Origin: JBDREC01 sp043820105 [NCBI: Pseudomonadota bacterium]
GTDB lineage: Bacteria > Bdellovibrionota_F > JAHFAK01
Length of the DNA stretch: 64,000 nucleotides
NCBI GenBank assembly: GCA_043820105.1
Contig: JBDREC010000028.1
Coordinates: forward strand, 1 to 64,000
Direction of reading: 5' to 3'
In this document: positions 24,204-50,176 of the stretch, one piece after another
How positions within the stretch are numbered: position 1 is the first letter of the stretch
Layout of the letters: each line of letters opens with the position of its first letter
Position numbers and translations under genes: made by a program
Notes under the pieces: generated by a model
Seen by the model: only the letters and a program-made list of their open reading frames with translations
What the model was told of the DNA's origin: nothing
Database searches by the model: none

Positions 24204-24213
24204 TTATTCAGTT

Positions 24214-24394
24214 ATAAGTCGTAAGTCGTAAGTCGTAAGTCGTAAGTCGTAAGTCGTAAGTCGTAAGTCGTAAGTCGTAAGTCGTAAGTCATAAGGAGTA
24301 AGTATTTTTACTGTTTATTAAACGATAAAAAATACACTTACCACTTACCACTTACCACTTACCACTTACGACTTACCACTTACCACTTACCACT
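24214..24394. repeat. GTAAGTC heptamer array with inverted ACTTACC arm
   Basis: About twelve GTAAGTC units (24214-24301) face about eight ACTTACC/ACTTACG units in opposite orientation (24337-24394) around a 35-base spacer. The pair would form a hairpin of over 50 bp. It ends three codons before the spoVG stop. The gene prs, usual near here in related synteny, is absent. Confidence 0.93.
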
Positions 24395-24398
24395 TAAT

Positions 24399-33791: not shown

Positions 33792-33993
33792 GAAAATCTC
33801 AGGGAAGTTATTTTAAAAAGGGCATGCGCCCCAGTCGCTACACTCAGGCATTAAAAGGCTTTATTTTTGTAATTGATAAAGAGCTGCATTCTTTCGCTTT
33901 TTTCAATAACAAAATAATAGCCTTTTAATGCCTTCGTTGCAGCTCCTTCCTGACTTTTTATGCCCTTTTTAAAATAACTTCCCTGAGATTTTC
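33792..33993. repeat. Hairpin element A (about 205-bp family)
   Basis: Left arm 33792-33825 and right arm 33960-33993 are perfect inverted complements over 34 bases. Inner arms (33847-33868 / 33911-33932, GGCATTAAAAGGCT) are nearly complementary. Between them lie unpaired boxes: GCCCCAGTCGCTACACTCA on the left and TTGCAGCTCCTTCCTGAC-TTTTTATGC on the right. The boxes recur in elements C and D while the arms do not. It sits upstream of the aldolase gene, next to palindrome B. Confidence 0.9.
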
Positions 33994-34325
33994 TTATATA
34001 AAAAATAGATAATGGAATATGTTATGAGAATTGTTAAGTGTTGAACCTCATTTACATTTAAATATTGGCCTGATTTTATAAGAAAAGGAAATCGGGTCTT
34101 TAACTCAAAAAAAGTGTATCGGAGCCGCGCTAGCCGGTTTTTCCTAGTAGAAGTTAAATGAAATCTCTACCTTTTTAATTGTTCTTCAATTTGTAAATTT
34201 CATTTTACTTATACTTGGAAAATCGCGCGGTGAGATCAAGGCCAAAATTCCGCAGGGAATTTTGAGCCGTCTTTTTTTGAGTTAAAGACCCGATTTCCTT
34301 TTCTAAAATCAGGCAAGTACGCCAA
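33989..34325. repeat. Dispersed repeat copy 2 with intact palindrome B
   Basis: A flank (33989-34070) shared with 25728-25808 leads into a palindrome. The left arm (34069-34114) and right arm (34271-34313) are inverted complements over about 43 bases, apart from a 3-base insertion. The core has a second imperfect stem (CCTAGTAGAAGTTAAATG / CATTTTACTTATACTTGG) and a hairpin AAAATTCC-GCAG-GGAATTTT near 34243-34264. It lies about 145 bases upstream of a lipoprotein gene. 34326-34469 is AT-rich leader with CGGAGAG before the ATG. Confidence 0.88.
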
Positions 34326-34469
34326 CTTTTTTCACTTGCAAAAAATAGCATAATTATAATATGATATGTTGCTTCATTAAAATGTTTGAAATTTTGATGG
34401 ATAATTTGCTTGTTTTATGATACAATATGTCATAGATAGTGTTTTTTTATTAAATATCGGAGAGTTAAT

Positions 34470-35618
34470 ATGAATATTTCTTCACTTTTTAGAAAGCTAA
34501 TTGTATTTATTCTTGTTTTTGTAATGCTTGGAGTTATTGCTTTTATTTCTTCTTGTTCTAATAGAGCAAATAGAGCAGCTTACAGACAAGGTGGAATATA
34601 TGGCCCACAACAAAATTATGCAAAATATAAAGATCAAAGACCAGGCTATCAATACAGAAACCGAGATCGTTTTAAAGGCAGACAATTGCCAGGCTACCCT
34701 GGCTATTCTTCAATGTCTATGGCTTTAGAACTTGCAAAGCTTGAAGCTGCTCACTCAAAGAGTATGGGAAAAACAGCTTTAATAGCAGCAGCCATCGGTG
34801 GTGGAGCTGGAATAGGATTAGGAATACTAGGCGCTGCTACAACTGGAGGCAGTGCAACAGCTGCACCAAGACCTGGAACTGGCGGAGGTGTTGAATATAC
34901 TCCATCAACTGTTTGTATAAGTGGCGAATATCATACAAATGGGAGTTGTAAGATTTATGCAGTGGCTATGCCTTGTTATAATTTTGAGAGTCCTGATTGT
35001 AGAAGACCAGCTGCGGTTACACCACCACCTAGAGATCCAGTTGCTAGTTCGACGTCGAGAGGGCCTGGAGCTGATAGAATACCACAGGAGCAGGGAGAAT
35101 CACAACCAGATTATTGCAATCGCTTATATGAAGTATGGAAAACAAGATTTCAATGTGCCGCGACTTTTTGTGAAATGGCTCAAATTGAACTTTGTCGAGA
35201 TATGGGCTATTTTGATTATGATGACAATAAACAAAGAAGAATTGAAGAAAGAGAACAAGCTCAAACAACTCAAGTGATGCTTAAACGCCAAGATTATGAA
35301 GATAAGAAAAAAGCGTATGAAAGATTACGTGATGAGTATTTTTTAGTTTACAAGGTTCAGATAGCAAAACCAGTTCAGAAGACTAAACCGGCAGGTTATG
35401 TAGATAGAAACCCAGATACCATTAAAGACCTGAAGAAAAGAGTCAGAGAAAGCTATCATGCAATGAATAATGCTTATGGAAAATGGTATAGAGATTCTAC
35501 TAAAACGAGTCTATTTGAAAGAACAGAACATTCACAACTTAGACCAAAAGCAACAAACATCACATATCAAGAAGAACAAGAATCTTGGTTTAAGCAATAC
35601 GTTAAATTCGCTGATTAA
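34470..35618 (+). CDS. Large lipoprotein of unknown function
   Basis: I do not recognise this 382-residue protein. It has a lipoprotein signal with lipobox ISSC (Cys29) and an Arg/Tyr/Gly-rich stretch (YQYRNRDRFKGRQLPGYPG). A Gly/Ala-rich hydrophobic segment follows (IAAAIGGGAGIGLGILGAAT, about 105-125), which could insert in a membrane. Next come a Cys-rich middle (nine or so Cys between 150 and 255) and a charged helical C-terminal third. The Gly-rich segment resembles glycine-zipper envelope proteins. Promoter and leader include palindrome B. Confidence 0.65.
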   Translation: MNISSLFRKLIVFILVFVMLGVIAFISSCSNRANRAAYRQGGIYGPQQNYAKYKDQRPGYQYRNRDRFKGRQLPGYPGYSSMSMALELAKLEAAHSKSMGKTALIAAAIGGGAGIGLGILGAATTGGSATAAPRPGTGGGVEYTPSTVCISGEYHTNGSCKIYAVAMPCYNFESPDCRRPAAVTPPPRDPVASSTSRGPGADRIPQEQGESQPDYCNRLYEVWKTRFQCAATFCEMAQIELCRDMGYFDYDDNKQRRIEEREQAQTTQVMLKRQDYEDKKKAYERLRDEYFLVYKVQIAKPVQKTKPAGYVDRNPDTIKDLKKRVRESYHAMNNAYGKWYRDSTKTSLFERTEHSQLRPKATNITYQEEQESWFKQYVKFAD

Positions 35619-35629
35619 TATTTCTCAAT

Positions 35630-35978
35630 ACAAAAATAATCAATAATTAATAAATAATAAATAATAATTAATGGAATTTTATATAACCCGGGATCCTGAA
35701 ACAAGTTCAGGATGACCTGTCTTTTACTTGTTCTCTTGTTCCCCTGCGCTCTTGTTCTCTTTTAACAAGTGCCACATTACTAGCCGCTAATAAAAACAAT
35801 CGATAATCAACAAACAATGAATATCAATCTTATAACCTACAACTTACCACTTACCACTTACCACTTACCACTTACGACTTACGACTTACCACTTACGACT
35901 TACGACTTACCACTTACCACTTACCACTTACGACTTACCACTTACCACTTACCACTTACCACTTACGACTTACGACTT
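35630..35978. repeat. Block of four repeat families
   Basis: In order: AATAATT-type units (35636-35676), the palindrome ATCCTGAAACAAGTTCAGGAT (35692-35712), CTTGTTCTC octamers (35727-35762), ATCAATAATC-like DNA (35795-35830), then about nineteen ACTTACC/ACTTACG heptamers (35838-35978). The last heptamers encode the final codons and stop of galE on the minus strand. No gene is supported in 35619-35962. Confidence 0.9.
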
Positions 35979-36946
35979 ATATGCCACTTCCAAGCATGCT
36001 CCAAAATTGTCTCAATTTCAAAATACTGAGGTTTCCAAGACAAAAGACTTTTCGCTTTTTCGCTTGAACCTACTAAGATATCTGGATCTCCGGGGCGCCT
36101 TGCTCCCTGTACTATATTGATTTCTTTGCCTGTTACTTTTTTTGCAGCTTCAATGACTTCTTTTACAGAATAGCCCAGGCCATTACCAAGGTTAAAATGA
36201 CAGGATTTATTTTCCTTTTTTATATATTCTAATGCTTTTACATGCGCATCAGCAAGATCTGTTACATGAATATAATCACGAATACACGTTCCATCTTCTG
36301 TATTATAATCATCACCAAATATTGTGATGCTTGCTCTTTTGCCGCTGGCTGCATCTAAAACTAAAGGAATAAGATGCGTTTCAGGGTTATGATCCTCTCC
36401 TATTTCGCTTTCAGGATCAGCGCCAGCTGCATTAAAATATCTTAAAGCAGCAGACTTCAGGCCATAAGCCACATCAAAGTCAGCCAGCATTTTTTCAACA
36501 GTTAATTTTGTTTGGCCATAAGGATTAATTGGATTTTGGGTGTGATCTTCTGGAATTGGGATGGTATTTGGCATACCGTAAGTAGCGCAGGTTGATGAAA
36601 ATACAAAATATTTAATATTATTATTTTTGCAGGCATTCAGTAGATTAAAAGTCCCAACAACGTTATTCTCATAATACTTTGCAGGATCAGTTACAGATTC
36701 ACCCACATAAGCATAAGCTGCAAAATGCATGACAGCGTCTGGTTTGTGCTTTTTTATAACATTATTTATACGTTCAGAATCAAGCAAGTCACCCTTTTCA
36801 AACTCAGACCACTTGACAAATGCTTCATGTCCATAAACAAGATTATCAAAAACCACAACCTTATATCCCTGTTTTGCAAGTTCTTTACAAGCATGACTTC
36901 CAATATATCCAGCTCCACCTGTTACTAATACTTTTTTAATATCCAT
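35963..36946 (-). CDS. galE: UDP-glucose 4-epimerase
   Basis: The 327-residue enzyme interconverts UDP-glucose and UDP-galactose. It shows VTGGAGYIGSHACKEL, FAAYAYVGESV, the Ser site FSSTCATYG, the catalytic YGQTK and AALRYFNAAGADP, all GalE hallmarks. The C-terminal Ser-Arg-Lys-Ser and stop codon are written in the GTAAGTC heptamer array, so the array has grown into the gene end. Repeat arrays flank both sides in inverted orientation. It borders the polysaccharide region and would supply UDP-galactose. Confidence 0.94.
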   Translation of the reverse strand: MDIKKVLVTGGAGYIGSHACKELAKQGYKVVVFDNLVYGHEAFVKWSEFEKGDLLDSERINNVIKKHKPDAVMHFAAYAYVGESVTDPAKYYENNVVGTFNLLNACKNNNIKYFVFSSTCATYGMPNTIPIPEDHTQNPINPYGQTKLTVEKMLADFDVAYGLKSAALRYFNAAGADPESEIGEDHNPETHLIPLVLDAASGKRASITIFGDDYNTEDGTCIRDYIHVTDLADAHVKALEYIKKENKSCHFNLGNGLGYSVKEVIEAAKKVTGKEINIVQGARRPGDPDILVGSSEKAKSLLSWKPQYFEIETILEHAWKWHISRKS

Positions 36947-36962
36947 ATTTAATCCTTAATAT

Positions 36963-37115
36963 AAGTGGTAAGTGGTAAGTGGTAAGTGGTAAGTAAAAAA
37001 ATGTCAAATAAATGAAGAAAATCTATATAAACTCTTTCATTAATTATTATTTATTATTTATTAATTATTGATTATTTTAAACTGAACACACAGAATCCTG
37101 AAACATGTTCAAGAT
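36963..37115. repeat. Repeat block upstream of galE
   Basis: GGTAAGT heptamers (36963-36993), AATTATTATTTATTATTT units (37036-37077) and a degenerate copy of the ATCCTGAAACA...TTCAAGAT palindrome (37093-37113) repeat the families seen downstream of galE, the heptamers in inverted orientation. 37116-37275 is AT-rich leader of the next gene. Confidence 0.82.
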
Positions 37116-37275
37116 AACTTGCATATTTTCAAGAGAAAATATTACCCTAGAGTTTTGTTCTTAGCTTTTGAAATAAAATGAGGTAGTTCCATAAGCTTTT
37201 ATGTTGATATTGTCTTTCGGATAAAGTAAAGAAAGCAAAAAATCCCTCATTAGCTAAATATTGGATATTAAATAC

Positions 37276-39927
37276 ATGAAATATTTTTTTATAGGCATTA
37301 ATTTTCTATCATTTGTTATTTTCAATTTATATTTCGACTTTGGCAGATTTGGAGTTTCATCCTTTTTGCTTCCAAGTATTGAGGCTATATTTTTTTTAGT
37401 TATAATGCTAAAGATATATCGCGATGATCCGGAAATGGATCCAATATATTTGATGGGAGCATATACGGCCATTTTACCGACTCTTTTTTATAATATCTGT
37501 AATACAGCTTATTCAGTGGGAATTTATCCTGACAGCGCCTGGATTTTTTGGATATTTCATCTTGTTTTTCTCGCTGTTATAGCGATTTTCTTTGTAAAAA
37601 AGATGATCTCAGAAAGTATGATTATTGGCATTTTATATAATGCCTCAATTCTTTATAATCCGGTTTATGTTAAGTTCTCCGCCCTTTCATTTCTTATTTT
37701 TTGTGCCTTTACAATAGCAGGTTTTATTGTTTTATTTGAGCGTTACAAGCTTGAAATTAAATTATCTGTTATTCATTATGCAGTAATCGCTTTTTTGTTT
37801 TTTACCTTTATTTCAACAATATTTTCAGATTTTTTGTGGGTTTCTACAGTCGCTTTTTTTAAGGTTTCTGCTTTCTGCACACTTTTTTTTGTGGTTTCTT
37901 TTTATAAGGATAAAAAAAAGCTTTTTAAGGTTTTTTTAGTAGCCTTTCTCATGACAAGTTTAGCCATGTTTTTTGAAACGATTTCAGTTTATTTTGAAAG
38001 AATTCTAATTCTCGGATTTATTGATGGTATAAATCGCAGGCTTTTTATTTTCCAAACACACCCGATTCATATAGCTCAATTTTTAGCATTGGTACTGCCT
38101 TTTATAATTATTTTTCCGGTTATTTATAAAAAGAAAATAAATTTAATTTTTGCGGGATTATTATTTTTATTGTCACTTCTAACATTACTGCTCACATATT
38201 CCAGGTCGGCATTAGCTGGGTTGTTCCTGGGATTTTTTGCTTTGTTTCTTATTCTAACAGGAGATTTATTTTTCCGAAAAAGCTTCCAAATTCGAAAATT
38301 TCATGTAGCAATAGTATTTTTTATTCTTATCAGCGTTTCAGGATCGGTCTTTTTAGGATTTAAAGCCTCTGATGCTTTTGCTCAAAGATTTGACTCAATT
38401 TTTGATATTAAATCACTAAAATTGAATAACAGAATAAGTGATTGGATGCTTACACTGCGGTTTATTAAAGAAAAACCACTGACTGGACATGGCCTGGCAA
38501 CCCGAAAGTACTCTTTTTCAAAATATTTAAAAGATCCGAGCTTGAAGCATTTACGGGATTATCACACCATTATTTCTCATAATGTATTTTTGGGAATCGG
38601 TTCTGAAATTGGTGTGTTCGGCATGCTAGCTTTCATCTTCATCTATTTTTTTTCAATTATAAAGGTGTTTGCAAAATATTATAAATCCAATTCAACCGAT
38701 CGATATTATTATTTAATATTATTGCTGTCTTTTATATGCATTTTTCCAAGCATGCTTGTTGGAGTCTTTATAGATACGACCTCTGTTCTTTTATGGCCCT
38801 TGTTTGGTTTTGCCAGTTTTAGTTCCGGCAATAGAGTGAGTTCAAGATTTCAAATAAAGTTTTTATACCTATCTTTTATACTTATATTAATGTTAGTGTT
38901 TCTGCTGTCAGCTTTGAGATATGTATCCAGGTACTATTATGACTATGGAACGTATCTGGTAGCAGCCAAGAAGAATAATCAGGCTGAAGTTGCTTTATTA
39001 AAGGCTTATTCCTTAATTCCCTTTAATTATTATTATCCTCTTGAATTAGCTCACTTGTATGCTGAAGAAAACAGGTGGGATAAAGCTCGGGAATATTATG
39101 AGCTTACACTAAAAGAAAATCCCTATGATCTGATCATCAACATTGAATATTCGGATGTTTTGAAATACAGCGGCCAGGCAGAGCAAAGTAACAAGGTCTT
39201 GGATTATGTGGCTTCTTTTACCGAGCAAGACTTTAGTGGATTGCTTTACTCAAGATTAGCTCTTACTAATATAGAAAAGAAAGATGAGTTTATAAAATAT
39301 TTTATAAAAATATTAAACTCAGACATTAATCACTTTGTTAGTTTTCTAAAACAGGATCCAAAGCTCGTAGAGAAGGTTTTAAAATCAGTCAATCAAATCA
39401 AGTTAAATGATTTAAGTGAAAAAGCACTTTTAAATTACGGAAGTTTTTTTGAAAAGATCGGACTAATTAAAATGACGGTTTATCTGAATGACAAGGCAGC
39501 AGATCTTTTTCACTCAGATCTGGCTTTAATAAAAAATATTCAAATTTTCAGAAGTTATAGAAACTATGAAGTACTATTAAAAAACCTTGATAAATTGAAG
39601 TCAGGTTATCTTTATTCATCAATTTTCAAATCAGTTGTTTATAATGAGATTGGGATTAGCGAGTATTTTATGGGAGATTTAGATAAAGCCCTGGATGCTT
39701 TTAATATCTCCCAGTCTAGTTGGAATAATTTGTATTTAGACAACCTTATTGCACATGTGTACTTAGAAAAAATATATCAAAAGCAAAATAATTTGGACTT
39801 AGTATCAAAAGAAAAGGCTAAAATAAATTTAATAAAAAAAGATATCAATTTCTGGATTGAAAGATGTCTTGGTAATTATAGCGGGGATTTTCAGGCACTA
39901 CAGATAAAGGAGTTTTTGGGTAGATAA
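37276..39927 (+). CDS. O-antigen ligase/polymerase-like protein with TPR tail
   Basis: The 883-residue protein has about twelve membrane helices over residues 1-560, with the Wzy_C/WaaL-type section: TYSRSALAGLFLGFFALF, a large loop with KPLTGHGLA and IISHNVFLGIGSEIGVFG (the loop His and Arg are typical). Residues from about 575 (AALLKAYSLIPFNYYYPLEL ... ENRWDKAREYYELTL) form tetratricopeptide-like repeats. It should join or polymerise surface glycan, or glycosylate protein, at the periplasmic face. TTG 37261 is an alternative start; neither has a strong ribosome-binding site. Confidence 0.82.
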   Translation: MKYFFIGINFLSFVIFNLYFDFGRFGVSSFLLPSIEAIFFLVIMLKIYRDDPEMDPIYLMGAYTAILPTLFYNICNTAYSVGIYPDSAWIFWIFHLVFLAVIAIFFVKKMISESMIIGILYNASILYNPVYVKFSALSFLIFCAFTIAGFIVLFERYKLEIKLSVIHYAVIAFLFFTFISTIFSDFLWVSTVAFFKVSAFCTLFFVVSFYKDKKKLFKVFLVAFLMTSLAMFFETISVYFERILILGFIDGINRRLFIFQTHPIHIAQFLALVLPFIIIFPVIYKKKINLIFAGLLFLLSLLTLLLTYSRSALAGLFLGFFALFLILTGDLFFRKSFQIRKFHVAIVFFILISVSGSVFLGFKASDAFAQRFDSIFDIKSLKLNNRISDWMLTLRFIKEKPLTGHGLATRKYSFSKYLKDPSLKHLRDYHTIISHNVFLGIGSEIGVFGMLAFIFIYFFSIIKVFAKYYKSNSTDRYYYLILLLSFICIFPSMLVGVFIDTTSVLLWPLFGFASFSSGNRVSSRFQIKFLYLSFILILMLVFLLSALRYVSRYYYDYGTYLVAAKKNNQAEVALLKAYSLIPFNYYYPLELAHLYAEENRWDKAREYYELTLKENPYDLIINIEYSDVLKYSGQAEQSNKVLDYVASFTEQDFSGLLYSRLALTNIEKKDEFIKYFIKILNSDINHFVSFLKQDPKLVEKVLKSVNQIKLNDLSEKALLNYGSFFEKIGLIKMTVYLNDKAADLFHSDLALIKNIQIFRSYRNYEVLLKNLDKLKSGYLYSSIFKSVVYNEIGISEYFMGDLDKALDAFNISQSSWNNLYLDNLIAHVYLEKIYQKQNNLDLVSKEKAKINLIKKDINFWIERCLGNYSGDFQALQIKEFLGR

Positions 39928-40003
39928 AAGTGATCATGTTAATTTATAAATACAGTCTACAGTTTTTAAATAAAACATAAACTTGTCCCATCGCGACAAT
40001 GGG

Positions 40004-41593
40004 CTACCACTTATAAATCGTCTGCTTTACCGTCTCTGGCAATTCCTTTTCAAAATCATGCAAATTGTAAAACAGAAAAGCTGCCTGCTTATGATTAAAA
40101 GCGTAAAAATGAACCTTGTCAGAGCCTACTGCTACATTATTCGAAATCTGCCAGCTCGCGACTTTTATCCAGGTTTTAGGAATCGAAAACCATTCATCAT
40201 ATAAAACAGCTATATCCATTTTTAACTGCATGGCCAATTGATTATTATAATCACTTGTATTATAACCTTCCCGAATAGCCCTGGCTGTTTCGATGCTTCC
40301 TAGCCCGACCAGGTCAAGGCAGTAAATATCAGCAAGATAATTGATAACACCTATGTCATTTGCTATTACACGTGAATCATTATAGTATTTTTTCAGAAAT
40401 GTTCCCATTTGATATTGTTGCTCATATATGTTTGTCGGCGCCTGGCTGGCTAAAATCAAGGAGCTATAAGCCCTTGAGAAAAATGGAAGTGTCATAATAA
40501 AAACAAGTAAAAACATTGAAATTAACCTGGCCCGTTCTTTTCTTGAATAATTTTTAAGCTTATTTAAATCAATTAATCCAAGACATGAAATTGTAAGAGC
40601 AAAAATACCCAGGGCAACTAAATATGCATCATATCTATATGCACCTTTGCTCATTTGAGCAAATTGCATATGCAAAAATGTGGTCCCCATAAATAAAATT
40701 ATCAGGATCTTTTCAAGTGTAAAAAAGTCGCTATTTATTTTAAATAAGCAAACTAAAACACACAGAGCAAGAACAACTAAAACAAAAGCATATAGATTAT
40801 CTTGAACTTCATATGCAGAGTAAAAGATAAATTTAAAGATTCCGGCAAAGGAAAAAAGATCAGGCATTTTTCCTTTTAATAAAACCGAGTTTGGAAAAAA
40901 ATACCAGCCCTTTGCAAGTGAAATAATTCCATAAATGATAAGCGGCATAGCCGCTATACAAGAAACAATTATCCCTTGCTTAAAGCGTTTTTTGAAAAAC
41001 ATTAAAATCATTATTATAAAAACAATAAAAATCGCTTCGTATCTTGCCATTGTTAAGCAAGGAGCCAAGATAATAGCATATAAAAGTTCTTTAGAATAAA
41101 CCTTATTTGAAGCAAGGTAAGCCGAAGAATAGTAAGCAAAGAAAATGGTAAGCATCAAATGAAGCAAATGCTCCTGACCTGTGTAAAACAAAAAAGGTAT
41201 TGGAGAAAACAATAATATACTAATTAAAGATATGAATATGATCTGTTTATGAATTTTATGGCGTAAAAAGATGTTATAGAGAAAAATTAAAGATAAAAAC
41301 ATTATAATGAAATTTAAAAAAAAAGGTATATTTTCTGATGTGCCAAAAACAAAAAAAACTGCTGATAATAAAAGTGTCCACAAAAGGGATGATGAAGATG
41401 AGGTAAAATGCTCTTTATTAATACCCCAGGTTCCGTGCTGGGCTAAATTTTTAGAAATAGCCATGTGGATATAGGCATCATCATTGACATATACGTATCT
41501 TCCATGATTGATGTATGATAATATAAATGAATTAAGAAGTAATAGTGTTAAAACAATTAAAACTAATACAATTGGCCAGTGTTTTTTTAGCAT
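40004..41593 (-). CDS. GT-C membrane glycosyltransferase-like protein
   Basis: The 529-residue protein has one helix at 8-28 and then a large first loop with NDDAYIHMAISKNLAQHGTW, the acidic pair of GT-C enzymes that use lipid-linked sugars. About ten further helices and a C-terminal soluble part follow. It would move a sugar from polyprenyl phosphate in the periplasm. The acceptor is unknown. Start taken at ATG 41593; a TTG five codons earlier is less likely. Confidence 0.72.
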   Translation of the reverse strand: MLKKHWPIVLVLIVLTLLLLNSFILSYINHGRYVYVNDDAYIHMAISKNLAQHGTWGINKEHFTSSSSSLLWTLLLSAVFFVFGTSENIPFFLNFIIMFLSLIFLYNIFLRHKIHKQIIFISLISILLFSPIPFLFYTGQEHLLHLMLTIFFAYYSSAYLASNKVYSKELLYAIILAPCLTMARYEAIFIVFIIMILMFFKKRFKQGIIVSCIAAMPLIIYGIISLAKGWYFFPNSVLLKGKMPDLFSFAGIFKFIFYSAYEVQDNLYAFVLVVLALCVLVCLFKINSDFFTLEKILIILFMGTTFLHMQFAQMSKGAYRYDAYLVALGIFALTISCLGLIDLNKLKNYSRKERARLISMFLLVFIMTLPFFSRAYSSLILASQAPTNIYEQQYQMGTFLKKYYNDSRVIANDIGVINYLADIYCLDLVGLGSIETARAIREGYNTSDYNNQLAMQLKMDIAVLYDEWFSIPKTWIKVASWQISNNVAVGSDKVHFYAFNHKQAAFLFYNLHDFEKELPETVKQTIYKW

Positions 41594-41729
41594 TTGAAAA
41601 ACTTTCAACGTCTTAGTTAGTACTTGAAATTTCTACTTAATTTTAAAATAATTTACAAGATAAAGATTAATTTCTATTTTACTTGTGAAGTTTTAATTAT
41701 TATTTTATAGTTTATGAAATGGAAACCCT

Positions 41730-43427
41730 ATGATAAAATATTTAAAGAAACATAAATCACTTATTTTTGAACTGCTCCCCATAGCTATAATCATATTAGC
41801 TTGGATTAAAATTTCTTATGGAATCATGGATTCTTTTGACCTTAAATACTGGGATGAATCTGATTATTTATCCTCAGGAGTTAATTTTAAAAGCGCTTAC
41901 TTTTTTACTGACGGTTTTTTATATTTTTTATGGTATAAGCTGCTATCGTTATTTTCTGCAAATACAATTAAATTATACTTTTTAAACTATGCTGTTTTAA
42001 TATTGTTGAACCCAATTTTTTTATATATTCTCCTCAGAAGAATTAAATTAAGCATTTTTGTTTGCCTTACTGGTTCGCTGATATTCCTGATTTCATACTC
42101 GAATTGCGTCACCTGGCCCTTTATTACAAGATTCGCTTTTCTAATCATGTTAATTACCCTGATTTTATTAACCTTAATAAAGAATGATATTTTAAAATAT
42201 CTTATTGCTTTGACAGGGATAATATCTATCGTATATGTCAGATGTGAACATATTTTATCCTTATCTTTGTTTCTAGCTGGATTTTCCATCTATTTTCTTT
42301 ACACCCTCCTAAAGAAAAAAAACAAACGATATTTAAGGCTTCTAATTCTTAACTTACTGGTTGTATTGTTTGTTCTGTTTTTAAAAAATCCAACGGATAA
42401 TAAAAGGCTTTTAACAGAAAACAGATTGATGATTGCTTTTGGCCAACACTACGCCCTTAATACACATTTACAAGGTGAATTCGAATATGATCCTATGACC
42501 AACTGGCCAATACTTCTACAGGAAAAATTCAAGACAACAAACTCTCTCTCTACAGCTTTTTTTAATAACCCTTTTGCAGTGTTTAAACATATTTCACTTA
42601 ATATCTTTCAGTTAGGTCAAAAAATAATTAATGTTACCTGCCTGCCCTATTTTATTAAAGATAATTATTCGCGAGCTTTTGCTTTAATATTATTATTAAT
42701 TGTTAGTGGTTTTACAATTATCAAAGTAGTAATAAATATAAAGGATAATTACAGGGTTTATTTTAACATCAATAATATTTTTAATGACAAAATTTTCTTT
42801 TTTTTGACCATGCTTTTATTCTTTATTCCAACAATTACCATAATCCTTTTAATCTTTCCCCGTGATCACTACTTGGTGCCTTTCTGGGGAATGATTTTAA
42901 TAGTTACAATATTTACACTTTTTTCTAATTTCAAATACAATTTCAAATATGCATTCCCGGCTAAAATAATTTTTATAATACTTTTTTTGTACTTTATTCC
43001 ATGGAATACTTCATTAACATTTGGCCTTTTACCATCAGAAAAAAGAATTAATGTGCATGAAAAATACTGCACAAATTTAAAAAAGCTAAGAATATTTAAT
43101 GAACTGATTCAGTACAGAGAAGTTACTTTCCTTGGAGACGCTGGTACATTTGAGATGTATCTGCACGGGAAATTGAATCATTATTATCAGGGAGGTAAGC
43201 AGGACAAGCCATTCCCTGAATACATTAAAGAAAAAAACTTTGATATTATTTTAGTGGCAAAAAGTATGTTAAAAAATATAGACTATGCTCAGGACCAAAC
43301 TTTTTTACCCTTTATAAATAGCCTTCCTAACAAAGAATGGTCAATTATTAGAATTGATAAATGTGAGGATTTTGTTATTATAAGGCGGGATTACCTAAAG
43401 GAAATCTCATGGGAAGATGGAAATTAG
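41730..43427 (+). CDS. Polytopic membrane protein, GT-C-like
   Basis: The 565-residue protein has a helix at about 12-32 followed by DSFDLKYWDESDYLSSG, a first-loop acidic motif (Asp-Glu) like GT-C glycosyltransferases. Some ten more helices and a soluble C-terminal domain (from about 430) follow. A role in surface glycan assembly is inferred from this motif and the neighbours. GGAAA lies 5 bases ahead of the ATG. The stop lies 13 bases from the convergent methyltransferase stop. Confidence 0.65.
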   Translation: MIKYLKKHKSLIFELLPIAIIILAWIKISYGIMDSFDLKYWDESDYLSSGVNFKSAYFFTDGFLYFLWYKLLSLFSANTIKLYFLNYAVLILLNPIFLYILLRRIKLSIFVCLTGSLIFLISYSNCVTWPFITRFAFLIMLITLILLTLIKNDILKYLIALTGIISIVYVRCEHILSLSLFLAGFSIYFLYTLLKKKNKRYLRLLILNLLVVLFVLFLKNPTDNKRLLTENRLMIAFGQHYALNTHLQGEFEYDPMTNWPILLQEKFKTTNSLSTAFFNNPFAVFKHISLNIFQLGQKIINVTCLPYFIKDNYSRAFALILLLIVSGFTIIKVVINIKDNYRVYFNINNIFNDKIFFFLTMLLFFIPTITIILLIFPRDHYLVPFWGMILIVTIFTLFSNFKYNFKYAFPAKIIFIILFLYFIPWNTSLTFGLLPSEKRINVHEKYCTNLKKLRIFNELIQYREVTFLGDAGTFEMYLHGKLNHYYQGGKQDKPFPEYIKEKNFDIILVAKSMLKNIDYAQDQTFLPFINSLPNKEWSIIRIDKCEDFVIIRRDYLKEISWEDGN

Positions 43428-43440
43428 TAAAAGGCTTTGA

Positions 43441-44202
43441 TTATTTGATTTTTTTTATTACTATGGTTTGAAACATAGAGAAATGTTTATCGATGGGTTT
43501 AAAAAGTTTTTCAAACTGTCTTATCGGTTTATATAAGAAAGCCGGCAAAGAAAACTTGCTTGATACACCACCACTTAGAATATAACTAAATGGCATAAGA
43601 TGCTCGATCTTTTCAATTTTTAAATCAGGAAACATTAGACAGAATTTTTCATAATCTCTGACAAAAACAATCCAGGGCAAAGCAATATTAGCGTTTGATA
43701 AACGCTTCCCCCCCTGTATTTCCCATCCTGATTTAGGATCCATGGCTTCAAAATGCAAATATTTATAAATCAGTCTACTCCAAATGCTAATCGAAGGTTC
43801 AAGCATTATAAGCTTACCATCTTTTTTCAAAACCCGATTTACTTCATTTAGGAATTTTTCGGGTTTATCAATATGGTGGAATACATTTAATAAAAAAATC
43901 CTTGATACTGATCTTTCCTTAAAAGGCATTTCATATGTATCAAAAGTTATATCACAGTATTCTAAGTTGGCAATATCTGATGTAATCACAGAGGGAATGA
44001 CTTCCTTTAAAAAACCTCCTCCAGAACCAATCTCAAGCAATTTTTCTGCTTCAGTATTTACAACATGGCTTTTGAATATATTATACCACTCAAGATAGAT
44101 GTTTTTTAAAAACTTCTTTTTATTGATGTTCTGCCGGTGAATTCGAGTTATTTCTGTGCCATCTGGATCATGTATTAATAGTTTCTTTTTTTTATTTTTC
44201 AT
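43441..44202 (-). CDS. Class I SAM-dependent methyltransferase
   Basis: The 253-residue protein has motif I LLEIGSGGGFLKEVIP near residue 60, LLNVFHHIDKPEKFLNEVNR and VLKKDGKLIMLEPSIS, the usual order for Methyltransf_11 enzymes. The target is unknown, probably a sugar or lipid in the glycan locus. I start it at MKNKKKKLL (44202); a longer frame to 44259 runs into the arm of hairpin element C. The codons GGG GGG AAG at 43708-43714 make a G7 run. Confidence 0.82.
   Translation of the reverse strand: MKNKKKKLLIHDPDGTEITRIHRQNINKKKFLKNIYLEWYNIFKSHVVNTEAEKLLEIGSGGGFLKEVIPSVITSDIANLEYCDITFDTYEMPFKERSVSRIFLLNVFHHIDKPEKFLNEVNRVLKKDGKLIMLEPSISIWSRLIYKYLHFEAMDPKSGWEIQGGKRLSNANIALPWIVFVRDYEKFCLMFPDLKIEKIEHLMPFSYILSGGVSSKFSLPAFLYKPIRQFEKLFKPIDKHFSMFQTIVIKKIK
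43708..43714 (-). repeat. G7 run inside a methyltransferase gene
   Basis: Seven consecutive G on the minus strand encode Gly-Gly in frame (IQGGKRL). In DNA this AT-rich such a run is unusual and could slip, switching the gene off. Here the frame is intact. Confidence 0.7.
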
Positions 44203-44248
44203 TTTTGGTTCATCTCCAATTTGAATACCTAAACAATAAACCGGGCAC

Positions 44249-44455
44249 ATAAAAAACATTACAAAACCTCTTTTTCAAAAAGCTACTGCCCACACTCCTT
44301 ATTCAAGCAATAAAAATATTTTATTATTAAAGGCTTATTGTATTCCCACTGTCATGCAATAAACCTTTATAATAAATATATTTTTATTGCTTTCATGCAG
44401 TCGTGCTCCTGCATTTTTATGCTTTTTGAAAAAGAGGTTTTGTAATGTTTTTTAT
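44249..44455. repeat. Hairpin element C (about 205-bp family)
   Basis: Arms 44249-44283 and 44421-44455 are perfect inverted complements over 35 bases. Inner arms (44306-44340 / 44357-44391) match at about 31 of 35. Unpaired boxes are TACTGCCCACACTCCTTATTCA on the left (44284-44305 region) and TCATGCAGTCGTGCTCCTGC-TTTTTATGC-like DNA on the right (44393-44422). It lies just upstream of the methyltransferase start and has the same orientation as element A. Confidence 0.92.
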
Positions 44456-44536
44456 ACCAATTTATTAACAGCAGTTCTTGATTTAGTCCACATTGTATCA
44501 AGTGTCGTTATATTTTATTATTTAGAAACAGTGTTT

Positions 44537-44741
44537 GCTAAAAGTTTTAACAGATCTCTTTTATAAAATGCATAAAAAGCAAGGAGATCGACTGTATGAT
44601 GGAGTAAAAAGTATATTGATTTTTTTAAGTTCAGGTCTGACAGAGGAAGACATGAACTTCATGAAATCAAATACTTTTTGCGACTGAGTAAGGAGATCGG
44701 TGCTTAGCATTTTATAAAAGAGATCTGTTAAAACTTTTGGC
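44537..44741. repeat. Hairpin element D (about 205-bp family, inverted)
   Basis: Arms 44537-44571 and 44707-44741 match at 34 of 35 bases. Inner arms lie at 44606-44633 / 44653-44679. Read on the minus strand, the boxes are GCACCGATCTCCTTACTCAG and CATACAGTCGATCTCCTTGC followed by TTTTTATGC, matching elements A and C. It lies 81 bases from C in opposite orientation. Elements C and D explain most of the 600-base gap 44203-44809, where no gene is visible. Confidence 0.92.
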
Positions 44742-44809: not shown

Positions 44810-46357
44810 TCAATTGATTGAAATTTTAAAGACAAGGGCCCCATCGAATTTTATCATTTCCCTGATTGATCCATATTGTGAAAAATAAGTAATCAATATT
44901 GAAATATTTTCATAGTTCTTGTCATCTATCCAGATTAAATAAACAATACCAGTGTTCCTTGCCTTAAAATACTCGGCCAGGGTGGGATCAAATAAATCCT
45001 TTATATTAAACAGAATTGACTTCCATTGCTTATTAATCATTTTGTTTTCAGAAAGATCTTCATTTATTCTTGTTTTTGACTCGTGGTAATAAATAAAATA
45101 AGATGGAATATCATTATATACTTCAAAATTGGCCTTCATTCCATGTGGCAAAATAATTGCATCACCTGGCTTATAGTTTTCATTGATATAAACAGAAGCC
45201 TTCTTCCAATTTCCATCATTTTGTCCGCCTTTTTTATAGTATGGCTTTAAGGCTAATAAATTATTCGAAAAAATACAGATAAGAATAAATACAATAAAAT
45301 AATTGGGACGGGCATACTTTTCCAGATTGGGACTCAGACCTGTCTTTAATAGGCTCATAAATAAATCTGACAAATACGAAAGGCCAATTGCGATTACAAG
45401 CACAATGAAAGGCAATAAGTAAAATATATATCTGACATGAAAGAAGCTGTTTTTGGTAATGAAAAATGCAAGCATGGAAGCAATTACAAACATTGAAACA
45501 AAAAGCCAGAAAATTTGTTTTTCTTTTTTATAAAGAAAAATACTTCCAAAAATAAATAATATTATAGATATAAGCTTAAAAATACTATAGCCTGGGGCAA
45601 AAAGCATTATGCATTTTAAGGCAGAGTGATGAACAATCGTTACATCCTTAAGCCAAGAAATCCAACCTGTTTGTAAAAATACAACTAACCATGGAATAAA
45701 TAACAAGACTGATAAAATACCTGCAAATAAATAATTTCTGAATAAAAGAATGTCAATTTTTCTGGTTTTAATATAGTTAACAAATAAAAAAGCGACTATA
45801 AAAAAACACTGTGCAACAGCAAAGGACATGGTTATCATATGTGAATAAAATAAAAGACTAAGCATAAGCCCATAAAAAATCCAATTGCGTAATTTAGCCT
45901 TTTCTTGCATAGCCCTTATAAGAAATAACGTAGCAAGTGGAGAAAATATATTGAGAATTGCATAATTTCTTCCTTCCTGAGCATAAACAATGTCAAAAGG
46001 ATGGAAAGACAGAATAAGGGCTGAAATAAGTGCGACTTTTAAGCCAAAGATTTTTTTTGCGAAATAAAATAAAATTAAAAGAGCAATCAGTGAAAATATC
46101 AAAGATGGAAGCATAAAATTAAAAGTATTATTACCAAGCATCTTCATAAACAAATGCCTGACAAGCGGATCAAGAGGGCTGTTCCCCGGTATTTCTATTG
46201 GAATTACTTTTAGAACATCCGGAAGGTTCCTGGCAGATGCTGTAATATAGGTTCTGGCCTCATCGTCCCAAAGAGAATAGGCATCGAATTTATAGATTCG
46301 AAATGCAAAAGCCAGAAGTAAAATTAAAAATAATAAAAGATAGTGTTTTTTTTTCAT
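44810..46357 (-). CDS. GT39-like membrane glycosyltransferase
   Basis: The 515-residue protein has an N-terminal helix, then FDAYSLWDDEARTYITA, the Asp-Asp-Glu first-loop motif of PMT/ArnT-type enzymes. HPFDIVYAQEGRNYAIL is the second conserved loop. About ten helices follow, with a soluble C-terminal domain (from about 390). It would use polyprenyl-phosphate sugars at the periplasmic face. ATG 46357 has GAAGGT six bases upstream; the longer frame to 46393 does not. It is the last gene of the long minus-strand glycan run. Confidence 0.78.
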   Translation of the reverse strand: MKKKHYLLLFLILLLAFAFRIYKFDAYSLWDDEARTYITASARNLPDVLKVIPIEIPGNSPLDPLVRHLFMKMLGNNTFNFMLPSLIFSLIALLILFYFAKKIFGLKVALISALILSFHPFDIVYAQEGRNYAILNIFSPLATLFLIRAMQEKAKLRNWIFYGLMLSLLFYSHMITMSFAVAQCFFIVAFLFVNYIKTRKIDILLFRNYLFAGILSVLLFIPWLVVFLQTGWISWLKDVTIVHHSALKCIMLFAPGYSIFKLISIILFIFGSIFLYKKEKQIFWLFVSMFVIASMLAFFITKNSFFHVRYIFYLLPFIVLVIAIGLSYLSDLFMSLLKTGLSPNLEKYARPNYFIVFILICIFSNNLLALKPYYKKGGQNDGNWKKASVYINENYKPGDAIILPHGMKANFEVYNDIPSYFIYYHESKTRINEDLSENKMINKQWKSILFNIKDLFDPTLAEYFKARNTGIVYLIWIDDKNYENISILITYFSQYGSIREMIKFDGALVFKISIN

Positions 46358-46422
46358 AGGTACCTTCAAAGCTAAGCATGCGGCCAGAAGCAAGCGATTC
46401 TATATGACAGCTTTATAGCCTC

Positions 46423-47919
46423 CTAAACGAGTTTTAACTTTTTAAAACCAATCCAGCACATTTTAAGCAGTAACAAACCATGCTTGAAGCGTTCAATTTT
46501 GATATTTCCATAGGTCCTGCTTTGATAGCGAATTGGAATTTCAACAATTTTAAGATTGAGTTTTGCAGCTCCCAATAATAGTTCAAAATCACCAAAGGGA
46601 TCAAAGTCTCCAAAATAGGCCCTGTTTTCCTTGATTTTAAGATAATTTTTCTTAGTCAGCACCTTGGTTCCACAAAGGGTATCCTTGATGGACTGCTCCA
46701 AAATCCAGGTAAACATCATGCTGAAAAATTTATTTCCAAGGATATTGAAAAGCCGCATGGCTTCTTTTTCCATTTGATAAACCAGCCGCGTTCCATTGAT
46801 AAACTCGCCATGCGATTCAACAATGGCTGTGAAGAATTTGGGCAAATCCTCAGGTGGAACCGTTAAATCAGCATCCAGAATCATCAAAACATCGCCTGTT
46901 GCAGCATCAAAGCCTTTTCTGGTTGCATCAGCTTTTCCAAGACTCAGCATTTTGTCAGGATCCCTGTTTAGCTCTGCTAGAACGTCTTCCTTCTTCGCGT
47001 GCCTGCCCTTTCTGGGCACCTGATGAATCAACCTGATATCTTTTGTTTGGCTAAACTTCTCAATCATTTCTTCAATTTTTTCAACAGTACCATCTGTAGA
47101 AGCACCATCTACAAAAATTATCTCAGTATGCTTCCCCATTTTGGGAATACGGTTTACAGCATCCTCAATATTTCCCATTTCATTTCTACAAGGCACAACC
47201 ACGGAACAGGAATACTTATTCTCTGCATTCTTTTGAGTTTTATTGGCTGTTTCTTTAACAACCACATACTGAATAAGACATAATCTCCTGATAAAAGGTA
47301 TTTTGGCTATAATATTATTAACAAAATATGAAAGAAAGGGAATTTTCTTTGGCAGTAAAAGCCTGTATCCTTTCTTGATTGATTCATAACCATTAAGTAC
47401 CAGTAAATTTTCAATATCCGTCAGCGACAGCCAGTTCTGATCTTCCTGCTTTGATTTCAGGTTTAACTTTTCTGCAAGTTTTATCAAAGGTTCCCAGAGA
47501 TAATTATAATAAACAACAATTAATCTTGAATCAACCCTGGTCACTTTGTTTAGATTTCTAAAAGCTGTGCCAATATCTGATAAATCTCCGATCAGATTTG
47601 ATAAAATGACATAATCATATTTCTTCCCATGTTTCAGGTTTTCAATATCATCAAGTTCAAAGTTCAGATCAGGATATTTTTCCCTGGCTCTTTTTATCAT
47701 TTCTGGCGAAAAATCAATGCCTGTGCCTTCAGAGGGCCTAGTGCTGTTTAACAGATCCCCTGTTCCTGAACCTACTTCCAAAACTTTTTTAGAAACTGGA
47801 ACCATGCTTTTTACCAATACTTCAATTTCATTATTGTAATATGAATTTTTTACAAGCCACAAGTCCCTTTCCATAACCTGAGCATCCCAGAATTTTATTT
47901 TTTCCTGCTTACTGAGCAT
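46423..47919 (-). CDS. Methyltransferase-GT2 glycosyltransferase fusion
   Basis: The 498-residue protein joins a class I methyltransferase (about 1-215; VLEVGSGTGDLLNSTRPSEG, LNFELDDIENL) to a GT2 transferase of the dolichyl-phosphate-mannose-synthase type (about 235-498; SVVVPCRNEMGNIEDAV, VDGASTDGT, MILDADLTVPPEDL, DTLCGTKVLTKKNY). The second half probably loads polyprenyl phosphate with a sugar for the adjacent GT-C enzyme. I start it at MLSKQEK (47919), overlapping the upstream methyltransferase by 11 bases, with AAAGGTG ahead. Confidence 0.85.
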   Translation of the reverse strand: MLSKQEKIKFWDAQVMERDLWLVKNSYYNNEIEVLVKSMVPVSKKVLEVGSGTGDLLNSTRPSEGTGIDFSPEMIKRAREKYPDLNFELDDIENLKHGKKYDYVILSNLIGDLSDIGTAFRNLNKVTRVDSRLIVVYYNYLWEPLIKLAEKLNLKSKQEDQNWLSLTDIENLLVLNGYESIKKGYRLLLPKKIPFLSYFVNNIIAKIPFIRRLCLIQYVVVKETANKTQKNAENKYSCSVVVPCRNEMGNIEDAVNRIPKMGKHTEIIFVDGASTDGTVEKIEEMIEKFSQTKDIRLIHQVPRKGRHAKKEDVLAELNRDPDKMLSLGKADATRKGFDAATGDVLMILDADLTVPPEDLPKFFTAIVESHGEFINGTRLVYQMEKEAMRLFNILGNKFFSMMFTWILEQSIKDTLCGTKVLTKKNYLKIKENRAYFGDFDPFGDFELLLGAAKLNLKIVEIPIRYQSRTYGNIKIERFKHGLLLLKMCWIGFKKLKLV

Positions 47920-48571
47920 AATCAACACCTTTCTTTGAACACCTGAGAGAAACATAAAGAGCATAATCAAGAGGAACATTTTTAGGGAATATTATCTTAT
48001 CCTCTATCATAAATTTCTTTTTACATGCTGCAATTATGTCTGTATGACTGGATGGATGAATTTCATCAGGGTCGTAATTCATTAATTTATAAAACAAGTT
48101 GGTGATTTTATTTTTCACAGGAAAGGAAATAAAAAGTCTGCCCTCAGGTGACAGCACTCTTCCAAGCTCATCAAAGGCTTTATCAAGATTTTCAATATGT
48201 TCAAGCAGTGAAACACTGACAATACAATCAAAAAACAGTTTATCAAATTTCAAGTCCAGCACATTTCCAATAGTAAGATTAACATCAATTTTTTCTTTCA
48301 TGGTCATCTGATAGACATAATCAAGATTCTTATGTGTATCTATTCCAAACAGTATATTTGAACGTATTGCCAGTTCAGGAAACAAAAGTCCTGAGCCATA
48401 ACCAATTTCCACCAGCCGCTTCCAGCGTTTAGAACCCATAAGTTTCAGAGTGTTTATTAAACGTTTTTTATAGACATAGCCAATAAATGGCCAGTAATAG
48501 TAATCAATCGGATCTTCTGTATTTGTTTTTTTAATATTTTTTCGGTCAGGTAAAAGTATGTCCTCAAACAT
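47909..48571 (-). CDS. Class I SAM-dependent methyltransferase
   Basis: The 220-residue protein has motif I LVEIGYGSGLLFPELAI near residue 50, DCIVSVSLLEHIENLDKAFD and VLSPEGRLFISFPV. Target unknown. It is one of three consecutive methyltransferase domains in this run, suggesting a multiply methylated sugar or lipid. It overlaps the next gene by 11 bases and starts 2 bases after the previous one. Confidence 0.85.
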   Translation of the reverse strand: MFEDILLPDRKNIKKTNTEDPIDYYYWPFIGYVYKKRLINTLKLMGSKRWKRLVEIGYGSGLLFPELAIRSNILFGIDTHKNLDYVYQMTMKEKIDVNLTIGNVLDLKFDKLFFDCIVSVSLLEHIENLDKAFDELGRVLSPEGRLFISFPVKNKITNLFYKLMNYDPDEIHPSSHTDIIAACKKKFMIEDKIIFPKNVPLDYALYVSLRCSKKGVDYAQ

Positions 48572-48573
48572 TT

Positions 48574-49302
48574 TTATTCCTTCCTGGCACTTATAAATAA
48601 TGAACCTGCTATCTCTTTTATTAAAGGAAGTTTTTCAAGATACATCCCGAGGGTATTAATTGGCTTGATAAAAGGGGTTGGAAGTGCCGGGTGTAAAAAA
48701 TCAAATGGAATTATTTTGATATCAATAAAGCCTGCTTGCTTAAACTGCCTCTTTAGTTTCCACTTAAAAAACGCGGTTTCATCAGGAGAATCTCCTAATC
48801 TTTTCCCGATAAATGATATGTTTTTCTGCAGGGCGATTTGAGGATTAAACATATTTGGTTCTGTAAAAGCTATTTTTCCCGCTTTTCTTAAAACCCGGAA
48901 TATTTCACTCAAACACTTTTTAATTTCCATGTGATGTAAAACTGAACTTCCATAGACATAATCAAAAGATGCTTCTTTAAAGGACATGGCGTAGGCGTTC
49001 TCAATTAAGAATTTCACAGCCTGTTCATCAACATGGGCCTTTGCTTTATTTATAAGTTCTGGAGATATATCAATAGCCGTATAATCCTTGATCCCTGCAG
49101 ATATTTCTTTGGTAAACAAGCCTGTTCCACAGCCTATTTCCAGGACCTTCGTATTCTTTTGAATATTATTGGACAGCATGTTTACACGTCTTTTAAAACG
49201 TACTTTGCCAGCAGCCCCGTCCCAGTTCCAAATTGCTTCAGCATTTTGGGCTATTTTCTTTCCATGTGCTATTTCATGATTTATACGATTGTCCATTTTC
49301 AT
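48574..49302 (-). CDS. Class I SAM-dependent methyltransferase
   Basis: The 242-residue protein carries VLEIGCGTGLFTKEISAG near residue 53, YVYGSSVLHHMEIKKCLSEI and VLRKAGKIAFTEPNMF, a Methyltransf_11 core. The C-terminal part (LHPALPTPFIKPINTLGMYL) is hydrophobic and may face a lipid-linked acceptor. The start overlaps the last base of the upstream glycosyltransferase gene. Confidence 0.85.
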   Translation of the reverse strand: MKMDNRINHEIAHGKKIAQNAEAIWNWDGAAGKVRFKRRVNMLSNNIQKNTKVLEIGCGTGLFTKEISAGIKDYTAIDISPELINKAKAHVDEQAVKFLIENAYAMSFKEASFDYVYGSSVLHHMEIKKCLSEIFRVLRKAGKIAFTEPNMFNPQIALQKNISFIGKRLGDSPDETAFFKWKLKRQFKQAGFIDIKIIPFDFLHPALPTPFIKPINTLGMYLEKLPLIKEIAGSLFISARKE

Positions 49303-50144
49303 TAAACTTTCCTTAGTACTTTCAGAAAAATGTTTTTTGTTTTCTCGATTTTAGATTCTCCAAACACTTTCACAAGAAGTTTATAATTTGTAATTCCAAG
49401 CAAATAAACTATTTTCGAAACAAACAATCTTAATCTGATTTTAAAAGAAGCTTTTTTACGATATTTTTTGGAAACAAGCTCCCATTCCTTCCAGAACTTA
49501 TCAAAAAAGCCGCCTGTCACTGACTTTGATTCTGCATGGAACCTGTAATTTGCAAATACTTCCTTGTAATGAAAAAATCTATATTTTTGAGCTATTCTTA
49601 AAAAAAATTCATAATCAAGAGCATAAGTAAGTTTTTCATCCAGGTAGCCAAATTCATGTATAATATGTCTGCAAAAAAAGACTGACGGCTGGGACGGCAC
49701 AGAGTGCGAAACCCAATAATGTAAAAGATCATAAAAGCCCAGTTCCCTGTTGTCAAAGACCCTCATGAATTTACCTTTTTCATCTACTAAATTGCAATCA
49801 CCCATTGCAACATGTCTGTCTTTTTCGCAGTCTATTAATTTAGCAATCTTTGTAAAAGTACCAGGCTCATAGTAATCATCTGAATTCAGCCAGGCGATAA
49901 TATCACCTGAGGCCATTTTAAAACCTTTGTTTATGGCTTCTGCCTGACCAGTGTCTTTTTCAGATATCCAATTTAAATGATCATACTTTTTTAATATTTC
50001 TATTGTTTCATCTTTTGAATCACCATCTATTATGATATGTTCAAAGTTTTGATAATTTTGATTCAGAACTGATTTTATATTTTCCTTAAGATACTTCCCC
50101 TGATTAAATGAGGCTGTAATAACAGATATTTTTTTTGTATTCAC
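49302..50144 (-). CDS. GT2 family glycosyltransferase
   Basis: The 280-residue GT-A enzyme begins ISVITASFNQGKYLKENIKS, with IIDGDSKDETIEIL, EAINKGFKMASGDIIAWLNS and the metal-binding DD of LNSDDYYEPG. It is cytoplasmic, adding a nucleotide-sugar unit to the growing glycan. Start is GTG at 50144. Close in sequence to the next gene upstream (50177-51085), so the pair may have arisen by duplication. Confidence 0.9.
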   Translation of the reverse strand: MNTKKISVITASFNQGKYLKENIKSVLNQNYQNFEHIIIDGDSKDETIEILKKYDHLNWISEKDTGQAEAINKGFKMASGDIIAWLNSDDYYEPGTFTKIAKLIDCEKDRHVAMGDCNLVDEKGKFMRVFDNRELGFYDLLHYWVSHSVPSQPSVFFCRHIIHEFGYLDEKLTYALDYEFFLRIAQKYRFFHYKEVFANYRFHAESKSVTGGFFDKFWKEWELVSKKYRKKASFKIRLRLFVSKIVYLLGITNYKLLVKVFGESKIEKTKNIFLKVLRKV

Positions 50145-50176
50145 CTGGTTTTACCATCTAATTTTCATGAAACAAC

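What the first reader, a model, noticed from the sequence alone, without database searches (positions are those of the whole stretch)
33792..44741. A family of ~205-bp hairpin elements with conserved loops but unrelated arms
Three elements (33792-33993, 202 bp; 44249-44455, 207 bp; 44537-44741, 205 bp, inverted) share length and layout. Each has near-perfect outer arms of 33-35 bp, a left box (...CTCCTTAYTCA-like), imperfect inner arms, and a right box (GCAG...CTCCT..C, then TTTTTATGC). Outer and inner arms have no sequence in common between copies, yet the two arms within a copy match at 34-35 of 35. Conserved unpaired boxes with covarying stems are the signature of a folded substrate, in single-stranded DNA or RNA. 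Candidates are a non-autonomous element moved by a HUH or tyrosine recombinase, or a structural RNA. I know of no named family with this exact form.
Basis: partly seen in the sequence, partly recalled or inferred. Interest (0 to 1): 0.78.

Follow-up and report, generated by a model that had tools for sequence, protein, structure and literature searches.

The report
Diverged copies of a hairpin repeat
Three old copies of one ~205-base hairpin-forming repeat lie between genes of an unidentified bacterium; their stems have changed sequence between copies yet still pair almost perfectly within each copy, which is an unusual variant of an otherwise familiar kind of bacterial repeat.

Summary
The three nested hairpins are real and at the stated coordinates. 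Their outer stems hold 137 Watson-Crick pairs out of 138.

The central claim, conserved boxes but unrelated arms, is wrong. Outer arms of the three copies share 58 of 96 pairwise positions (null 33 or 29; p 5e-5 and 9e-5), about as much as the boxes. The copies are diverged relatives along nearly their whole length. What stands is the covariation: 34 of 65 pairs changed on both sides, none on one side only.

Best reading (0.45): an old interspersed palindromic repeat whose nested hairpin is kept paired by selection, with DNA template switching supplying the double changes. Rivals: a multicopy small RNA with CU-rich loops (0.25); a single-strand recombination substrate (0.08). No target duplications, recognisable recombinase, Rfam family or relatives were found. 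But the host genome is not held, its lineage is unknown, and the genome searches used a model with a mis-registered inner stem (my error), so absence elsewhere is weak evidence. The fourth hairpin shares the layout, not significantly the sequence.

The parts
33792..33993 (+). c1, nested hairpin: outer arms 33792-33825 / 33960-33993, left box about 33826-33845, inner arms 33846-33880 / 33899-33933, right box about 33934-33959
34081..34304 (.). e4, fourth nested hairpin of the same layout but without significant sequence likeness: outer arms 34081-34114 / 34271-34304 (interrupted extension to about 34064-34319), inner arms 34139-34164 / 34197-34222; extra small hairpin in one box. Orientation undecided
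44249..44455 (+). c2, nested hairpin: outer arms 44249-44283 / 44421-44455 (35/35), left box 44284-44304, inner arms 44305-44343 / 44354-44392, right box 44393-44420
44537..44741 (-). c3, nested hairpin, inverted and 81 bp from c2: outer arms 44707-44741 / 44537-44571 (34/35 plus one G-T on the + strand), left box about 44680-44706, inner arms 44664-44679 / 44606-44622, right box about 44572-44605

Best explanation
c1, c2 and c3 are old, diverged copies of one interspersed intergenic palindromic repeat (about 205 bp, a hairpin within a hairpin). Shown: common ancestry of arms as well as boxes; near-perfect pairing within each copy despite about 40% difference between copies; changes matched on both sides. 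Inferred: the fold is under selection as a hairpin, most simply at the transcript level as a cis-acting processing, stability or boundary structure between genes, as reported for Correia and ERIC elements; and the paired changes are produced at the DNA level, a mutation in one arm being copied into the other by template switching, which would explain why one-sided and G-U intermediates are missing. The elements are probably no longer moving. e4 is a separate palindrome of like layout.
For: Arms related: 58 of 96, p 5e-5 and 9e-5; the box-anchored register is the best of those tried in all three pairings. Pairing kept: 137 of 138 outer pairs Watson-Crick over c1-c3 and e4; corrected structure on c1-c3 95.3% of 192 cells paired, 34 of 65 pairs changed on both sides, 0 on one side only, shuffles 11.9, slides 4-7. 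G-U rare: 0 of 137 outer pairs in the predicted folds and 4 of 178 inner pairs. All lie between ORFs except that c2's outer arm overlaps the first codons of ORF 43441-44259. Template switching making and mending perfect stems, turning G-U into Watson-Crick pairs: PMC8794818 (abstract, start of introduction and Discussion read). Comparable stem-loop repeat families are common in bacteria: PMC2267715 (passages); RNase III cleavage of Correia-element transcripts: PMC10969869 (passages).
Against: Only three copies, no sister genome, no transcript data. The arm-likeness tests are on AT-rich sequence and single pairings are weak (p 0.07 to 0.0025); c1 is anchored at its GC, two bases short of its arm end, where the match would be 9 and 12 of 32 instead of 18 and 18, and allowing for the 12 registers tried would raise the joint p to about 1e-3. 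The pair structure was derived from the same three sequences. Interspersed repeats normally keep their arm sequence between copies; these do not. No function was tested. Template switching was not observed, only inferred; its authors call its role in maintaining short stems 'less clear'.
Confidence: 0.45

Rival explanations
1. A multicopy trans-acting small RNA: read on the element strand, two CU-rich boxes (CUCCU..., the right one followed by UUUUUAUGC) are held unpaired in a large internal loop and bind Shine-Dalgarno sequences, working like Listeria LhrC. On the other strand the same boxes read AGGAG, which could instead mimic ribosome-binding or GGA (CsrA-type) sites.
For: CTCCT in 5 of 6 boxes (162 nt in all) against 0.60 per kb per strand in the window. 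TTTTTATGC invariant in 3 of 3 right boxes. Both stems covary. LhrC carries repeated CUCCC(...)UUUU in loops and a single-stranded stretch and blocks a Shine-Dalgarno sequence (PMC4132741, passages). 25 of 40 ATG starts that I picked have an SD-like 4-mer upstream.
Against: The boxes are homologous, so 5 of 6 is not five independent finds; left and right boxes are alike only in c3 (p 0.0016; c2 0.17, c1 0.47). No strong terminator in c1 and one weak terminator-like site in c2; promoter-like sites 9 and 8 against 4.2 expected in shuffles, not tied to the element ends. No Rfam family at gathering score; sub-threshold hits are mostly microRNA-type hairpins. A 35-bp stem would be a likely RNase III substrate (general knowledge).
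Confidence: 0.25
2. A folded single-strand DNA substrate of an unidentified recombinase or HUH enzyme, working like an integron attC site (recognised by shape, not arm sequence).
For: Layout resembles a shape-recognised hairpin with an unpaired internal loop; pairs are Watson-Crick with G-T nearly absent; neighbouring copies are inverted and close (c2-c3 81 bp).
Against: No target duplication, no recognisable recombinase among 56 of 71 ORFs; attC defining features not met (see membership test); arms are related by descent, not free.
Confidence: 0.08
3. Non-autonomous transposon (MITE) with about 34-bp terminal inverted repeats, moved by a transposase elsewhere in the genome.
For: Size, AT-richness, intergenic position and stem-loop fit the general description; Coxiella QMITE2 has 23-29 bp TIRs and a 113-145 bp core (PMC10969869, passages).
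Against: No target duplications; terminal repeats differ between copies at about 40% of positions, so one transposase could hardly read them; no related insertion sequence was seen in the window. Old MITEs lose duplications, but their two ends should then decay apart, which these have not.
Confidence: 0.12
4. Chance AT-rich palindromes.
For: None beyond AT-richness (window 64 kb at about 32% GC).
Against: Fold z -12.9 to -17.2, right-box likeness, pair covariation, four of the layout in 64 kb against two in about 1.8 Mb of other DNA.
Confidence: 0.01

Closest known systems
Bacterial intergenic stem-loop repeat families (ERIC, YPAL, Bcr1 and others; PMC2267715, passages)
   Same: 100-200 bp, intergenic, fold into a long stem-loop, several copies in a genome
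   Different: Those families are defined by sequence likeness of the copies; here copies share only about 60% of stem positions and pairing is kept instead. Only three copies are known.
Prokaryotic MITEs such as Coxiella QMITE2, Geobacter Chunjie and the Correia element (PMC10969869, passages)
   Same: Small, AT-rich, intergenic, inverted terminal arms, stem-loop transcripts; QMITE2 has nearly the same proportions
   Different: No conserved terminal repeats, no target duplications, no source insertion sequence found here
Integron attC sites (PMC2727003, passages)
   Same: Shape-conserved hairpin with an unpaired spacer and variable stem sequence
   Different: attC are 57-142 nt with AAC/GTT boundary triplets and occur with cassettes and an integrase; none of that here
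LhrC multicopy small RNA (PMC4132741, passages)
   Same: Several copies; CU-rich motif followed by U run in unpaired places
   Different: LhrC is 111-114 nt with almost identical copies; these are ~205 nt with diverged copies and 35-bp stems; expression not shown
   Same: Hairpin in hairpin of similar size, several copies
   Different: Arms are conserved between copies and boxes unlike; scores 43.7 bits or less with the corrected model and both strands score alike

Membership tests
Integron attC site | length 57-142 nt | tested here: not met
   202-207 bp; range from PMC2727003 passage
Integron attC site | AAC and GTT triplets at the two boundaries (R'' and R') | tested here: not met
   Ends read GAAAATC/GATTTTC, ATAAAA/TTTTAT, GCCAAAA/TTTTAGC
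Integron attC site | tyrosine integrase and cassette array nearby | tested here: not met
   No integrase family among 56 of 71 window ORFs; the rest of the genome is not held
MITE | terminal inverted repeats conserved between copies | tested here: not met
   Inverted arms present, but 18/32, 18/32 and 22/35 alike between copies
MITE | target-site duplication | tested here: not met
   c1 best match 7 with 2 differences counted as p 0.16; c2 p 0.59; c3 none; e4 p 0.59. Old copies may lose it
MITE | related autonomous insertion sequence | not testable with these tools
   Own genome not held; none seen in the window
Intergenic stem-loop repeat family | several copies related in sequence | tested here: met
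   Right box p 0.0005-0.0075 in all pairings; arms p 5e-5; only three copies
Intergenic stem-loop repeat family | shared non-random fold | tested here: met
   z -12.9 to -17.2; 34 of 65 pairs doubly changed
Intergenic stem-loop repeat family | dispersed in many copies over the genome | not testable with these tools
   Own genome not held
LhrC-type small RNA | discrete transcript | not testable with these tools
   No expression data
LhrC-type small RNA | repeated CU-rich motif in unpaired places | tested here: met
   CTCCT in 5 of 6 boxes; a likeness of working, not of descent
Known Rfam family | score at or above gathering | tested here: not met
   Whole window: only tRNA-Gln

The most novel reading that the evidence does not exclude
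A repeat or RNA family whose identity is kept by shape: both stems of a nested ~205-bp hairpin are rewritten over time by DNA template switching, so that whole 35-bp arms drift about 40% between copies while staying Watson-Crick exact within a copy, with the CUCCU/TTTTTATGC boxes as the working part. Such copies would let one watch template-switch maintenance of long stems inside one genome.
Probability: 0.2. Interest if true: 0.65.

Novelty: new variant of a known kind. Interest (0 to 1): 0.4.

Why it matters
How long stems stay perfectly paired while their sequence changes is an open question, and template switching is one proposed answer (PMC8794818). Copies inside one genome that differ at about 40% of stem positions, with no one-sided pair changes in the outer stem, would be good material to test it.

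Tried and rejected
Target-derived arms (an element copying its insertion site into its arms): rejected because the arms of different copies are related. Hairpin-targeting insertion into pre-existing palindromes: no empty ~70-bp perfect palindrome is in the window; the other long inverted repeats are 7-bp arrays or weaker. e4 as a member of the family: boxes not significantly alike in either orientation (p 0.06-0.998), arms p 0.10, 0.10, 0.21, and the models pair only its arms, scoring both strands alike (39 bits). c1-e4 and c2-c3 as one paired unit: spacers not alike (p 0.42 and 0.22).

Host lineage: a scan with the window's pyrophosphatase gave 102 relatives, the best 80 kept, best identity 67%; in a tree of 78 of the 80 (two short rows dropped) plus the window, the window sits on a long, unplaced branch. 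DnaB reached at most 54% identity on a fragment and 52% over its length among 38 genomes, 51% in 12, and 48% in the 16 of 54 genomes that passed E 1e-120. Lineage unknown.

Search for relatives with model R1: 38, 9, 12, 297, 39, 41, 39, 41 and 38 genomes (554 look-ups, some genomes twice); best match 35.4 bits, against 187-203 for c1-c3. Weak: only 8 candidates per genome were scored and about 60-150 elsewhere, and R1's inner stem was mis-registered. R2 on the window and on 196 loci finds c1-c3 at 199-211 bits, nothing else in the window above 17.3, and at most 43.7 bits (L095) elsewhere. Of 29 loci brought in by R1, I looked at 13; L098 and L110 were folded at the wrong place.

Plasmids: no match for either pair; phages: no match for the c2-c3 region, c1-e4 not searched there. 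Literature: searches listed no paper on palindromic repeats with covarying arms (0, 1 off-topic, 0).
Full report
What is there. Three nested hairpins lie at 33792-33993 (c1, +), 44249-44455 (c2, +) and 44537-44741 (c3, -). Outer arms pair at 34/34, 35/35 and 34/35 plus one G-T on the + strand; a fourth hairpin, e4 (34081-34304), pairs at 34/34. Folding z-scores are -15.7, -17.2, -12.9 and, for 34072-34313, -13.3. In a sliding scan of 1,595 windows these four lead (z -7.0 to -8.4); the next is an inverted pair of 7-bp arrays at 24201-24440 (z -6.2). They form two close pairs: c1 and e4, 87 bp between outer arms (about 70 if e4's interrupted extension counts), and c2 and c3, 81 bp apart and inverted.

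Are the arms unrelated? No. With the arms anchored at the conserved GC next to the boxes, the three copies share 58 of 96 pairwise positions; dinucleotide shuffles give 32.9 +/- 4.7 (0 of 20,000 reach 58) and, without the GC, 52 of 90 against 29.4 +/- 4.7. Triplets of real intergenic 32-mers give 28.8 +/- 5.3, p 9e-5. This register is the best of 12 tried for c1 against c2 and c3 and of 11 for c2 against c3. Against this: taken singly the left-arm comparisons are only p 0.07, 0.04 and 0.0025, and c1's arm runs two bases past the anchor, a register in which it matches poorly. By part, identity over all pairings is 58/99 and 59/105 for outer arms, 33/60 for the left box, 59/93 for the right box, 44/66 and 43/72 for inner arms and 39/116 for the tip. 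So the boxes do not stand out from the stems, except TTTTTATGC in the right box, invariant in 3 of 3; only the tip is free.

Are the stems maintained? Yes. On the corrected structure 95.3% of 192 cells pair; 34 of 65 pairs have a change on both sides and none on one side only; shuffles give 11.9 +/- 2.7 and slides of 1-3 columns 4-7. The outer helix has 18 of 35 pairs doubly changed, the inner 14 of 27. The structure was taken from the folds of these same sequences, which favours it; the gap to the controls is large all the same. G-U pairs are rare: 0 in the outer stems of the predicted folds and 4 of 178 inner pairs. If the two arms of a copy had drifted apart as far as the copies have from each other, about 60% pairing would be left; 99% is seen.

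How it probably works (partly inference). A dead repeat would have lost pairing, so either selection holds the fold or a copying process mends it. Template switching at inverted repeats does the latter, converting G-U into Watson-Crick pairs in one step (PMC8794818: abstract, start of introduction and Discussion read). I take both to act: template switching as the source of paired changes, selection on the hairpin, most simply in transcripts between genes, as the reason the fold persists. RNase III cleavage of transcripts with Correia elements is a known parallel (PMC10969869, passages). No step of this function is shown here.

Rivals. The boxes carry CTCCT in 5 of 6 cases against 0.60 per kb per strand, the right one followed by a T run, much like the repeated CUCCC(...)UUUU of the Listeria small RNA LhrC (PMC4132741, passages). 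A Shine-Dalgarno-binding small RNA is thus a fair rival, but the boxes are homologous and no transcript is known. A single-strand recombination substrate like attC fails on length, boundary triplets and integrase (and the ORF scans), and no target duplication was found at any element. A MITE fails on conserved ends and duplications.

Known or not. No Rfam family reaches its gathering score apart from tRNA-Gln; sub-threshold hits over the elements are mostly microRNA-type hairpins, the best 33 bits against a gathering score of 90. No match in plasmids for either pair or in phages for c2-c3. The host genome is not held and its lineage stays unknown. Searches of 554 genome look-ups with model R1 found no relative (best 35.4 bits), but R1's inner stem was mis-registered through my transcription error and the larger searches scored few candidates, so this is weak. 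The corrected model R2 finds nothing more in the window or in 196 loci (best 43.7 bits). Those best matches are other palindromes, such as a ~220-bp nested repeat in genome G043 with conserved arms.

e4. Its boxes are not significantly like the others in either orientation, its arms p 0.10-0.21, and both models align only its arms. It shows that this genome holds more than one palindrome of this layout.

Verdict. Observation partly confirmed; the key contrast (unrelated arms, conserved boxes) is refuted; covarying nested stems are real. New variant of a known kind, interest 0.4.

Noticed in passing
window, many gaps, e.g. 5525-5606, 8052-8121, 24215-24303, 35838-35979: Intergenic tandem arrays of 7- or 8-bp units (TAAGTGG, GTATTCA, TACCACT, TTCTCTTG and others); beside tRNA-Gln two arrays face each other and form a strong hairpin.
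   Followed up: partly
521-760: A hairpin of CACAGAG/CTCTGTG units with an inner stem, another hairpin in a hairpin, sixth strongest folding outlier.
   Followed up: partly
L095, L099, L101 (genome G043): A ~220-bp nested palindrome in three places of a genome from the same phylum as a Schekmanbacteria MAG; unlike c1-c3 the arms are conserved between copies.
   Followed up: partly
43441-44259 (-): The ORF's first codons overlap the outer arm of c2, so its start is probably placed too far upstream.
   Followed up: no
44810-60588 (-): A long run of minus-strand genes for glycosyltransferases, methyltransferases, NeuB, a cytidylyltransferase and a DegT aminotransferase, as for surface or flagellin glycosylation.
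   Followed up: no
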